Of a stretch of DNA of 64,000 nt, positions 29,701-63,832 are shown piece by piece. The position numbers were made by a program, and so were the translations under genes. The stretch is from positions 3,821,501 through 3,885,500 of the forward strand of contig NC_092572.1 of the NCBI RefSeq assembly GCF_037975245.1. The letters run 5' to 3'. The DNA is from Apostichopus japonicus. Its lineage: Eukaryota; Echinodermata; Holothuroidea; Aspidochirotida; Stichopodidae. The notes under the pieces were generated by a model. That model was not told where the DNA came from. It saw only the letters and a program-made list of their open reading frames with translations, and did not search any database. Positions within the stretch are counted from its first letter, which is position 1; every line of letters begins with the position of its first letter.

Positions 29701-32700
29701 TGTTGAATTCATGACTTGCTGGGAGTAGTATGTAGGCTGGGAAAATGGCTTTGTGCCATGTGAGGTACTTGAAATCTGAGATAATAACCTCTCTGTATAA
29801 ACAATTGTACTATTCTAATTCTTTTGGGTATTTTGTTTTATTTTGTGAATTTCCGAAAATTTTGTATCGACGAAATACATGAGGCATTAGTGTGTCTGTT
29901 GTATGCTCTAGTCAACCTTAATCAGAATACTGAAGACTATTGTGTTTCACTGTTGTTGGAACACAACTATAAGCCCCTTCCTGTCCTCCACCCCCCCCCC
30001 ACCATGCACAATTTCCTGGTAAAATTATGCATTTGATCTTCTTATTCAGGTATTTCAAACTCTCTCAGGAAAGCAATTGAAGTGGAGTTGCTGATGACCC
30101 AGTTGTATGCTCATGTAGAAGAGGTGTCCCACTCCTGGAGTATGCTCAGTGGCATGCTGGGAGACTCAAAGTGGGATCATATGAATGATACCAGGTATTA
30201 AATATTAAACATAAACAAATACCCTCTGTTTCATGTAGAAGAGGTGTCCCACTCCTGGAGTATGCTCAGTGGCATGCTGGGAGATTCAAAGTGGGATCAC
30301 ATGAATGATACCAGGTATTTAATATTAGACACAAACAAACACCCTCTGTTTCATGTAGAAGAGGTGTCCCACTCCTGGAGTATGCTCAGTGGCATGCTGG
30401 GAGACTCAAAGTGGGATCACATGAATGATACCAGGTATTTAATATTCCACACAAACAAACACCCTCTGTTTCATGTAGAAGAGGTTTCTCACTCCTGGAG
30501 TATGCTCAGTGGCATGCTGGGAGACTCAAAGTGGGATCACATGAATGATACCAGGTATTTAATATTCCACACAAACAAACACCCTCTGTTTCATGTAGAA
30601 GAGGTGTCCCACTCCTGGAGTATGCTCAGTGGCATGCTGGGAGACTCAAAGTGGGATCATATGAATGATACCAGGTATTAAATATTAAACATAAACAAAT
30701 ACCCTCTGTTTCATGTAGAAGAGGTGTCCCACTCCTGGAGTATGCTCAGTGGCATGCTGGGAGATTCAAAGTGGGATCACATGAATGATACCAGGTATTT
30801 AATATTAGACACAAACAAACACCCTCTGTTTCATGTAGAAGAGGTGTCCCACTCCTGGAGTATGCTCAGTGGCATGCTGGGAGACTCAAAGTGGGATCAC
30901 ATGAATGATACCAGGTATTTAATATTCCACACAAACAAACACCCTCTGTTTCATGTAGAAGAGGTTTCTCACTCCTGGAGTATGCTCAGTGGCATGCTGG
31001 GAGACTCAAAGTGGGATCACATGAATGATACCAGGTATTTAATATTCCACACAAACAAACACCCTCTGTTTCATGTAGAAGAGGTGTCCCACTCCTGGAG
31101 TATGCTCAGTGGCATGCTGGGAGACTCAAAGTGGGATCACATGAATGATACCAGGTATTTAATATTAGGCACAAACAAACACCCTCTGTTTCATGTAGAA
31201 GAGGTTTCTCACTCCTGGAGTATGCTCAGTGGCATGCTGGGAGACTCAAAGTGGGATCACATGAATGATACCAGGTATTTAATATTCCACACAAACAAAC
31301 ACCCTCTGTTTCATGTAGAAGAGGTGTCCCACCCCTGGAGTATGCTCAGTGGCATGCTGGGAGACTCAAAGTGGGATCACATGAATGATACCAGGTATTT
31401 AATATTCCTCACAAACAAACACCCTCTGTTTCATGTAGAAGAGGTGTCCCACTCCTAGAGTATGCTCAGTGGCATGCTGGGAGACTCAAAGTGGGATCAC
31501 ATGAATGATACCAGGTATTTAATATTCCTCACAAACAAACACCCTCTGTTTCATGTAGAAGAGGTTTCTCACTCCTGGAGTATGCTCAGTGGCATGCTGG
31601 GAGACTCAAAGTGGGATCACATGAATGATACCAGGTATTTAATATTCCACACAAACAAACACCCTCTGTTTCATGTAGAAGAGGTTTCTCACTCCTGGAG
31701 TATGCTCAGTGGCATGCTGGGAGACTCAAAGTGGGATCACATGAATGATACCAGGTATTTAATATTCCACACAAACAAACACCCTCTGTTTCATGTAGAA
31801 GAGGTTTCTCACTCCTGGAGTTTGCTCAGTGGCATGCTGGGAGACTCAAAGTGGGATCACATGAATGATACCAGGTATTAAATATTCCACACAAACAAAC
31901 ACCCTCTGTTTCATGTAGAAGAGGTTTCTCACTCCTGGAGTTTGCTCAGTGGCATGCTGGGAGACTCAAAGTGGGATCACATGAATGATACCAGGTATTA
32001 AATATTCCACACAAACAAACACCCTCTGTTTCATGTAGAAGAGGTTTCTCACTCCTGGAGTATGCTCAGTGGCATGCTGGGAGACTCAAAGTGGGATCAC
32101 ATGAATGATACCAGGTATTAAATATTCCACACAAACAAACACCCTCTGTTTCATGTAGAAGAGGTTTCTCACTCCTGGAGTTTGCTCAGTGGCATGCTGG
32201 GAGACTCAAAGTGGGATCACATGAATGATACCAGGTATTAAATATTCCACACAAACAAACACCCTCTGTTTCATGTAGAAGAGGTTTCTCACTCCTGGAG
32301 TTTGCTCAGTGGCATGCTGGGAGACTCAAAGTGGGATCACATGAATGATACCAGGTATTTAATATTCCTCACAAACAAACACCCTCTGTTTCATGTAGAA
32401 GAGGTGTCCCACCCCTGGAGTATGCTCAGTGGCATGCTGGGAGACTCAAAGTGGGATCACATGAATGATACCAGGTATTTAATATTCCTCACAAACAAAC
32501 ACCCTCTGTTTCATGTAGAAGAGGTTTCTCACTCCTGGAGTATGCTCAGTGGCATGCTGGGAGACTCAAAGTGGGATCACATGAATGATACCAGGTATTT
32601 AATATTCCTCACAAACAAACACCCTCTGTTTCATGTAGAAGAGGTTTCTCACTCCTGGAGTTTGCTCAGTGGCATGCTGGGAGACTCAAAGTGGGATCAC

Positions 32701-61600: not shown

Positions 61601-63832
61601 GGTAACCCTACTCCTAACAGCCAGGGATGTATTCCAAGGTCAGTGAACCCTACTCCTAACAGCCAGGGATGTATTCCAAGGTTAGGTAACCCTACTCCTT
61701 ACAGCCAGGGATGTATTCCAAGGTCAGGTAACCCTACTCCTAACAGCCAGGGATGTATTCCAAGGTTAGTTAACCCTACTCCTTACAGCCAGGGATGTAT
61801 TCCAAGGTTAGGTAACCCTACTCCTAACAGCCAGGGATGTATTCCAAGGTTAGTTAACCCTACTCCTAACAGCCAGGGATGTATTCCAAGGTTAGTTAAC
61901 CCTACTCCTTACGCCAGGGATGTATTCCAAGGTTAGGTAACCCTACTCCTTACGCCAGGGATGTATTCCAAGGTTAGTTAACCCTACTCCTAACAGCCAG
62001 GGATGTATTCCAAGGTTAGTTAACCCTACTCCTTACAGCCAGGGATGTATTCCAAGGTTAGGTAACCCTACTCCTTACAGCCAGGGATGTATTCCAAGGT
62101 TAGTTAACCCTACTCCTTACAGCCAGGGATGTATTCCAAGGTTAGTTAACCCTACTCCTTACAGCCAGGGATGTATTCCAAGGTTAGTTAACCCTACTCC
62201 TAACAGCCAGGGATGTATTCCAAGGTTAGTTAACCCTACTCCTTACAGCCAGGGATGTATTCCAAGGTTAGTTAACCCTACTCCTTACAGCCAGGGATGT
62301 ATTCCAAGGTTAGTTAACCCTACTCCTAACAGCCAGGGATGTATTCCAAGGTTAGTTAACCCTACTCCTAACAGCCAGGGATGTATTCCAAGGTTAGTTA
62401 ACCCTACTCCTAACAGCCAGGGATGTATTCCAAGGTTAGTTAACCCTACTCCTTACAGCCAGGGATGTATTCCAAGGTTAGTTAACCCTACTCCTAACAG
62501 CCAGGGATGTATTCCAAGGTTAGTTAACCCTACTCCTAACAGCCAGGGATGTATTCCAAGGTTAGTTAACCCTACTCCTAACAGCCAGGGATGTATTCCA
62601 AGGTTAGTTAACCCTACTCCTAACAGCCAGGGATGTATTCCAAGGTCAGTTAACCCTACTCCTAACAGCCAGGGATGTATTCCAAGGTCAGTTAACCCTA
62701 CTCCTTACAGCCAGGGATGTATTCCAAGGTCAGTTAACCCTATTCCTAACAGCCAGGGATGTATTCCAAGGTCAGTTAACCCTACTCCTAACAGCCAGGG
62801 ATGTATTCCAAGGTCAGTTAACCCTACTCCTTACAGCCAGGGATGTATTCCAAGGTCAGTTAACCCTACTCCTAACAGCCAGGGATGTATTCCAAGGTCA
62901 GTTAACCCTACTCCTAACAGCCAGGGATGTATTCCAAGGTCAGTTAACCCTACTCCTTGCAGCCAGGGATGTATTCCAAGGTCAGTTAACCCTACTCCTT
63001 ACAGCCAGGGATGTATTCCAAGGTTAGTTAACCCTACTCCTAACAGCCAGGGATGTATTCCAAGGTTAGTTAACCCTACTCCTTACAGCCAGGGATGTAT
63101 TCCAAGGTTAGTTAACCCTACTCCTTACAGCCAGGGATGTATTCCAAGGTTAGTTAACCCTACTCCTAACAGCCAGGGATGTATTCCAAGGTTAGTTAAC
63201 CCTACTCCTAACAGCCAGGGATGTATTCCAAGGTTAGTTAACCCTACTCCTAACAGCCAGGGATGTATTCCAAGGTTAGTTAACCCTACTCCTAACAGCC
63301 AGGGATGTATTCCAAGGTTAGTTAACCCTACTCCTAACAGCCAGGGATGTATTCCAAGGTTAGTGAACCCTACTCCTAACAGCCAGGGATGTATTCCAAG
63401 GTTAGTGAACCCTACTCCTTACAGCCAGGGATGTATTCCAAGGTTAGTGAACCCTACTCCTTACAGCCAGGGATGTATTCCAAGGTTAGTTAACCCTACT
63501 CCTAACAGCCAGGGATGTATTCCAAGGTTTGTGAACCCTACTCCTAACAGCCAGGGATGTATTCCAAGGTTAGTTAACCCTACTCCTTACAGCCAGGGAT
63601 GTATTCCAAGGTTAGTTAACCCTACTCCTAACAGCCAGGGATGTATTCCAAGGTTAGTAAACCCTACTCCTAACAGCCAGGGATGTATTCCAAGGTTAGT
63701 TAACCCTACTCCTAACAGCCAGGGATGTATTCCAAGGTTAGTTAACCCTACTCCTAACAGCCAGGGATGTATTCCAAGGTTAGTTAACCCTACTCCTAAC
63801 AGCCAGGGATGTATTCCAAGGTTAGTTAACCC
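58624..63832 (+). repeat. About 124 x 42-bp array of exon 10 end plus 5' splice site
   Basis: Each unit combines about 33 bases like the exon 10 end (CCTACTCCTTACAGCCAGGG, ATGTATTCCAAG) with about 9 intron bases (GTTAGTGAA). Nearly every unit keeps CCAAG|GTTAGT or CCAAG|GTCAGT. Variants cluster regionally: ATGCCAAGG around 59360-60720, CCCTGCTCC around 60970-61520, GGTCAGT at 58760-59270, about 61000-61700 and 62640-62990, and GGTAACC around 61470-62060. Two units near 61910 and 61950 lack one base. Because 42 is a multiple of three, open frames of 1091 and 169 codons arise, in a frame different from exon 10. Confidence 0.97.

What the first reader, a model, noticed from the sequence alone, without database searches (positions are those of the whole stretch)
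30111..63832. Tandem arrays repeatedly seeded at exon-5' splice site junctions in two neighbouring genes
Seen: three arrays (120, 45 and 42 bp; 26, about 46 and about 124 units) each have a unit made of the last bases of a coding exon and the first bases of its intron, so about 196 near-identical 5' splice sites lie in three introns. A fourth junction (ACOX3 exon 9) shows decayed copies. Established: the AGGT tandem-duplication model of intron gain proposes duplications across such words. Inference: some local process amplifies exon-intron junctions in this genome, for example R-loop- or replication-linked slippage at splice junctions. I know of no described system of recurrent junction-centred minisatellites.
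Basis: partly seen in the sequence, partly recalled or inferred. Interest (0 to 1): 0.88.

Follow-up and report, generated by a model that had tools for sequence, protein, structure and literature searches.

The report
Repeat arrays spanning splice junctions
In what appears to be a sea cucumber genome, several introns carry dozens to over a hundred tandem copies of the exon-intron border; this resembles the 'mirages' known from amphioxus and looks mostly like chance birth of ordinary repeats, not a machine that targets splice sites, though it offers natural test cases for splice-site choice.

Summary
Three arrays (120 bp x 26, 45 bp x 46, 42 bp x 124) each begin in the last bases of a coding exon of Maelstrom (one) or an acyl-CoA oxidase gene, ACOX (two), and continue into the intron; 188 of 196 copies keep the GT of the 5' splice site. 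The same ACOX gene has a 3' splice-site array just outside the window (93 bp x 6.8), and a kinase gene elsewhere has a 5' array (31 bp x 15.9). In the window and ACOX arrays, use of any copy tested other than the exon-nearest one would add stop codons.

The inference of a junction-targeted process is not supported. In exons collected without regard to arrays, 1 of 119 junctions has a close copy of itself nearby, against 5.9% of random noncoding positions. Minisatellite density alone predicts about 0.7. Genome-wide word tests, pooled, give 1.56-fold (0.86-2.8), not significant, so a moderate preference is not excluded. The kind is already described: amphioxus 'mirages'. The genome matches Apostichopus japonicus in size and chromosome number, so this is probably an echinoderm case. 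Best reading: random minisatellite birth, kept because splicing uses the copy nearest the exon.

The parts
30111..33232 (+). Array 1: 120-bp unit x 26; first unit = last 84 nt of a Maelstrom coding exon + first 36 nt of its intron
   Evidence: TRF; sequence; exon end 30194; Pfam PF13017 spans the exon; 26 of 26 units keep GT
30050..30194 (+). Maelstrom exon whose end seeds array 1 (145 nt)
   Evidence: one frame open; PF13017 E=3.8e-29
52757..54826 (+). Array 2: 45-bp unit x 46; last 28 nt of ACOX exon 5 + first 17 nt of intron
   Evidence: TRF; sequence; exon end 52784; 46 of 46 GT
52552..52784 (+). ACOX exon 5 (seeds array 2)
58625..63832 (+). Array 3: 42-bp unit x 124; last 32 nt of ACOX exon 10 + first 10 nt of intron
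   Evidence: TRF; sequence; exon end 58656; 116 of 124 GT, 8 AT
58534..58656 (+). ACOX exon 10 (seeds array 3)
58105..58372 (+). Possible decayed partial copies of the ACOX exon 9 junction (about 58153-58193, 58250-58271, 58359-58372)
   Evidence: local alignment scores 32, 34, 28; 1.5% of 600 non-array control positions reach 34; weak

Best explanation
These are ordinary minisatellites that happened to be born across a splice junction, of the kind called 'mirages' in amphioxus.

Steps. (1) A short local tandem duplication covers the end of an exon and the start of its intron; this genome is rich in minisatellites, so such births are frequent (density shown, the birth event inferred). (2) The gene survives because the copy at the exon edge is intact and splicing uses the site nearest the real exon; using any further copy tested would bring in stop codons (stops shown, splicing choice inferred). 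(3) The extra copies lie in the intron and are free to expand, mutate and homogenise by unequal exchange or slippage; units 5-8 of array 1 repeat the pattern of units 1-4, and the donor columns show no consistent extra conservation (shown). (4) Junctions are not special targets: arrays there are simply conspicuous and tolerated (inferred from the tests below).
For: Unbiased exon edges: 1 of 62 donors and 0 of 57 acceptors have a nearby self-copy (score >=34), against 5.9% of 1500 noncoding positions in the same loci; 1 or fewer of 119 at that rate has P=0.006.

Array density: 28 arrays of >=2.5 copies and >=15-bp unit in 245,644 bp give 0.00565 spanning arrays per junction, 0.67 for 119 junctions; 1 seen.

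Word test: three AGGTAAGT words gave 15 distinct arrays against 16 for the backwards word over the same stretch (C1-C4 and C5 to 21.7 Mb), with 27,121 against 40,132 single occurrences genome-wide; ratio 1.39 (0.64-3.0).

Both junction types occur: the L039 array repeats intron end + exon start, and only the last of 7 acceptors gives an open exon. For arrays 1-3 each downstream donor tested adds a stop (array 1 copies 2-4, array 2 copies 2-3, array 3 copy 2). Donor-column variability against the rest of the unit: 0.034 against 0.020 in array 1, 0.034 against 0.070 in array 2; 8 of 124 array-3 units lost GT. For the L025 kinase array a paralogue, L026 (65% identity), has the same intron position and no array.
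Against: Three arrays in one window exceed the local seed-based expectation (P=0.0055; window preselected), and the ACOX gene has three junction arrays plus possible decayed copies.

A second word pair leans towards enrichment: AGGTGAGT 9-10 distinct arrays against 5 backwards, singles 16,981 against 19,034, 2.0-2.2-fold; by raw matches 512 against 261, also 2.2-fold. Pooled over both pairs the ratio is 1.56 (0.86-2.8, P=0.14) or 1.62 (0.90-2.9, P=0.11), so a moderate preference is not excluded. One junction array seen against 0.67 expected allows up to about 8-fold.

A second junction of the unbiased set, L063, overlaps a short weak repeat (14 bp x 2.4, TRF score 47), below the thresholds used. 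In array 2 the donor is less variable than the rest of the unit. Splicing of these transcripts was not observed.
Confidence: 0.74

Rival explanations
1. Splice junctions are hotspots of array birth: something tied to transcription or splicing (R-loops, U1 binding, replication conflicts) raises local duplication at exon-intron borders.
For: Three arrays in one window and a fourth in the same ACOX gene; AGGTGAGT word arrays 2.0-2.2-fold over the backwards control; pooled word ratio 1.56.
Against: 1 of 119 unbiased junctions, against 5.9% of noncoding positions; AGGTAAGT ratio 1.39 with an interval including 1; junctions lie inside the unit (84/120, 28/45, 32/42), not at its edges; a 3' junction is affected too.
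Confidence: 0.14
2. The arrays are functional: ranks of decoy 5' splice sites that bind U1, regulate splicing or suppress early polyadenylation.
For: GT kept in 188 of 196 copies; in array 2 the donor columns vary less than the rest (0.034 against 0.070); arrays are long.
Against: In array 1 the donor columns vary no less than the rest (0.034 against 0.020); 8 array-3 units lost GT; homogenisation alone keeps copies alike; copies tested add stops if used; a paralogous kinase intron does without an array.
Confidence: 0.06
3. The arrays are steps of intron gain by AGGT tandem genomic duplication.
For: Nearly every unit carries a GT donor, and the model uses duplicated AGGT words (PMC3443670, passages seen).
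Against: The arrays lie in introns that have their own conventional ends; a distant paralogue of the L025 kinase has the same intron without an array. For Maelstrom and ACOX no relatives were available.
Confidence: 0.03
4. Assembly artefact: the arrays are collapsed or inflated by the assembler.
For: Tandem arrays are a known risk; raw reads were not available.
Against: The matching published assembly used PacBio HiFi, 64x, mean read 14.7 kb, longer than the largest array (5.2 kb) (PMC10344927, passages seen); units are diverged (32 distinct of 46 in array 2, 12 of 26 in array 1).
Confidence: 0.03

Closest known systems
Amphioxus 'mirages' (Adh3; globins BflGb6 and BflGb9), PMC3087553, which cites Canestro et al. 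2002 for Adh3
   Same: Minisatellite-like tandem repeats whose unit spans an exon-intron boundary; both 5' and 3' boundaries; authentic copy at the exon; reported units 10-72 and 150-160 bp.
   Different: Reported in cephalochordates; here probably a sea cucumber, with up to 124 units (3 and 6 units in the two BflGb6 haplotypes). Normal splicing and somatic instability are reported there and untested here.
Amphioxus PGBD5 splice-site repeats, with TnC mentioned (PMC3902484)
   Different: Imperfect, few copies (three for the 108-bp repeat).
AGGT tandem genomic duplication model of intron gain (PMC3443670)
   Same: Tandem duplication of a stretch with a splice-site word.
   Different: There duplication of an exonic stretch creates an intron; here the copies lie in an intron next to its splice site.
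Variable internal tandem repeats of human genes in segmental duplications (PMC2812944)
   Same: Minisatellites that change gene structure, some at the exon-intron boundary.
   Different: About 4 units of 30 bp on average, half of them in coding sequence; novel introns proposed.

Membership tests
Mirage (exon-intron boundary minisatellite) | Tandem, minisatellite-like copies | tested here: met
   26, 46 and 124 copies
Mirage (exon-intron boundary minisatellite) | Unit spans a genuine exon-intron boundary of a coding gene | tested here: met
   exons in Pfam domains; frames consistent; no RNA evidence
Mirage (exon-intron boundary minisatellite) | Authentic copy at the exon edge, others intronic; 5' or 3' boundary | tested here: met
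   5': window arrays and L025; 3': L039 2809-3457
Mirage (exon-intron boundary minisatellite) | Regular mRNA splicing in spite of the copies | not testable with these tools
   no RNA data; only the exon-nearest site gives an open frame in the copies tested
Mirage (exon-intron boundary minisatellite) | Length polymorphism, somatic instability (Adh3, as cited) | not testable with these tools
   one assembly only; array 1 shows a block of four units repeated
AGGT tandem-duplication intron gain | A new intron created between duplicated AGGT words | tested here: inconclusive
   for the L025 kinase the intron exists without array in the L026 paralogue; for ACOX and Maelstrom no relatives were available
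Junction-targeted amplification system | Junctions enriched over random noncoding positions | tested here: not met
   1 of 119 against 5.9% of 1500. The seed-based and word tests do not show enrichment either, but leave room for up to about 8-fold and 2.8-fold

The most novel reading that the evidence does not exclude
Splice junctions are mild hotspots for tandem-array birth in this genome (about 1.5- to 8-fold), through a process shared by sea cucumbers and amphioxus, so that on the order of a thousand or more junctions carry mirage arrays; the ACOX gene, with three of them at both junction types, would be one locus caught in the act.
Probability: 0.15. Interest if true: 0.72.

Novelty: new member of a known kind. 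Interest (0 to 1): 0.42.

Why it matters
If right, mirages are not a cephalochordate oddity but what any minisatellite-rich genome will make at its many splice junctions. Introns with up to 124 near-identical 5' splice sites, and one exon with seven near-identical 3' splice sites, of which only the exon-nearest appears useful, are natural experiments on how the spliceosome chooses among nearly equal sites, and on how much junction duplication a gene tolerates. They also warn gene-prediction pipelines about false exons.

Tried and rejected
Considered and rejected: coding repeat (array 1 is often open at 40 codons per unit, but the first copy has a stop right after the junction); splice-site selection on copies (no consistent extra conservation: array 1 no, array 2 yes, array 3 lost GT in 8); assembly error (long reads); a rule that unit length is a multiple of 3 (120, 45, 42 and 93 are; 31 and 130 are not).

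One search's edge labels were swapped for loci on the minus strand; I found this and redid the edges with those loci turned round. The array densities do not depend on orientation; they include L070, which overlaps L069. One search placed the array-3 junction one column off; the GT count was redone. Rows dropped before the 119-junction count: L070 (duplicate of L069), L064, L027 and loci where no edge was certainly intronic (single-exon genes); L001-L008 (a repeat family) were not used; L039-L040 and the window were left out because they were chosen for arrays. The edges were placed by a heuristic, and some six to eight of the 62 donor calls look non-consensus and may be misplaced. Two weak repeats near junctions fell below the thresholds: 14 bp x 2.4 at L063 and 10 bp x 3 at an L037 exon edge.

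The distinct-array counts in the word tests are by eye from truncated lists (about the first 100 places) over a shared stretch. C2:31712258-31713770 and C1:4703609-4705358 were each counted as one array; C4:22562852 and C4:22566940 as one or two. Raw matches, which big arrays dominate: AGGTAAGT short gaps 286 against 447 backwards, long gaps 343 against 422, AGGTGAGT 512 against 261; per occurrence 0.95, 1.20 and 2.20. The long-gap control was not listed, so no distinct arrays were compared there. C2:15031717 appears in both lists of the second pair.

I saw no echinoderm mirage report in their listings; the library lacks most subscription papers. Canestro 2002 (PMC117041) is not held and is cited through PMC3087553.
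Full report
What is there. Three tandem arrays begin inside coding exons and continue into the following intron: 30111-33232 (120 bp x 26), 52757-54826 (45 bp x 46) and 58625-63832 (42 bp x 124). The exon ends lie at 30194, 52784 and 58656. The first gene holds a Maelstrom domain (PF13017, E=3.8e-29) and the second is an acyl-CoA oxidase (ACOX_C_alpha1 3e-46; Acyl-CoA_dh_M 3.3e-11; solved ACOX chains align across the 52784 junction). 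The subtype ACOX3 was not established. GT at the donor position is kept in 26 of 26, 46 of 46 and 116 of 124 units. Weak partial copies of the exon 9 junction follow at about 58153-58372; 1.5% of 600 non-array positions reach the same best score.

Where it is. The window is C12:3821501-3885500 of a genome of 671,581,487 bases in 35 contigs. The published Apostichopus japonicus assembly has 671.60 Mb, 23 chromosomes and 34 scaffolds, built from HiFi reads of mean 14.7 kb at 64x (PMC10344927: search listing, and passages, part of the abstract among them). The identity is an inference from these numbers; reads of that length would span the longest array.

More cases. The 19.5 kb that follow the window hold a 93-bp x 6.8 array in the same ACOX gene (PF01756, 8.4e-44). 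It repeats intron end plus exon start, a 3' junction, with seven acceptor-like copies of which only the last gives a stop-free exon. L040 also has a two-copy 130-bp duplication over an exon-like end followed by GTAAGT (no Pfam match). Among 30 kinase loci fetched without regard to arrays, L025 has a 31-bp x 15.9 array on its exon end. A distant paralogue, L026 (65% identity), has the same intron position and no array there.

Internal anatomy. The junction sits inside the unit, not at its edge: 84 of 120, 28 of 45 and 32 of 42 nt are exonic. Variability at the donor compared with the rest of the unit is 0.034 against 0.020 in array 1 and 0.034 against 0.070 in array 2. In array 1, unit 5 equals unit 1 and units 5-8 repeat the identity pattern of units 1-4, so a block that includes the exon-edge sequence has been copied. 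Using a downstream donor would add a stop in each copy tested: copies 2-4 of array 1, copies 2-3 of array 2 and copy 2 of array 3; in arrays 1 and 2 the stop lies in the first intron piece, which any later donor would include.

Is the junction special? Test 1: exon edges were taken from HMM-supported exons in kinase, P450 and two SNF-transporter genes. A 45-base query over the junction has a close copy (score >=34) within 1 kb on the intron side at 1 of 62 donors and 0 of 57 acceptors; 5.9% of 1500 noncoding positions in the same loci do. Some six to eight of the automatic donor placements look wrong, and one further junction (L063) overlaps a weak 14-bp x 2.4 repeat. Because an exon can only sit at the edge of an array, the fairer null is seed-based: 28 arrays (>=2.5 copies, unit >=15 bp) in 245,644 bp give 0.00565 spanning arrays per junction, 0.67 expected for 119, 1 seen; the interval allows up to about 8-fold. 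As a rate, 1 of 119 is 0.02-4.6%.

Test 2, genome-wide words. Three AGGTAAGT words with gaps of 15-45: 15 distinct arrays in C1-C4 and C5 to 21.7 Mb, against 16 for the same word read backwards. Single occurrences number 27,121 and 40,132, so the ratio per occurrence is 1.39 (0.64-3.0). A second pair, AGGTGAGT, gives 9-10 against 5 in C1-C4 to 22.6 Mb, with singles 16,981 and 19,034, 2.0-2.2-fold. Pooled: 1.56 (0.86-2.8), P=0.14, or 1.62 (0.90-2.9), P=0.11, as the C4 pair is counted. Counts are by eye from lists cut at about 100 places. Not all such words are real donors, so a moderate preference at true junctions remains possible.

The window itself: about 0.35 junction arrays are expected by the window's own density and 3 are seen, P=0.0055, but the window was chosen for this. 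With 0.00565 per junction and about 32 junctions per window (a rough figure), about 9 of some 10,500 windows of this genome would hold three or more by chance.

What is known. Amphioxus genes carry minisatellite-like duplications of exon-intron boundaries called mirages, at 5' and 3' borders, said not to interfere with regular splicing and to show length instability (PMC3087553, passages; PMC3902484, one passage). The arrays here meet the structural features of that kind that I could test; splicing and instability are untested. In eight answered library searches I saw no such report for an echinoderm in the listings; that is not proof of absence.

Conclusion. The finding is a well-observed new occurrence of a known kind, probably in another phylum and with long arrays. 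The proposed junction-amplifying process is not needed; the residual oddities are the clustering in ACOX and the second word pair.

Noticed in passing
window 13852-18593: Long inverted-repeat element: 871-nt arms, 99% complementary, 3000 nt apart, with internal 142/300-bp tandem repeats; looks like a foldback-type mobile element.
   Followed up: partly
window 11029-13576: 47-bp x 54 array not at any exon that I recognised; a non-junction array of similar size.
   Followed up: no
window 37515-38768, minus strand: 417-codon open frame resembling a non-LTR retrotransposon reverse transcriptase (motif recalled, no family search completed), between recognised Maelstrom exons.
   Followed up: partly
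window 5513-5793 and 55939-56489: The 133-138-bp units of these two short arrays look like reverse complements of each other by eye: an interspersed tandem family.
   Followed up: no
L040 9687-9927: Two-copy 130-bp duplication over an exon-like end followed by GTAAGT: a possible newborn junction array.
   Followed up: partly
G000 C1:2433338-2434870 and C1:2475062-2477982: Two arrays about 40 kb apart with AGGTAAGT mostly at about 76-bp spacing; not checked for exons.
   Followed up: no
window arrays 1-3 and L039 2809-3457: All four unit lengths in Maelstrom and ACOX are multiples of 3 (120, 45, 42, 93), while L025 (31) and L040 (130) are not; unexplained, possibly chance.
   Followed up: no
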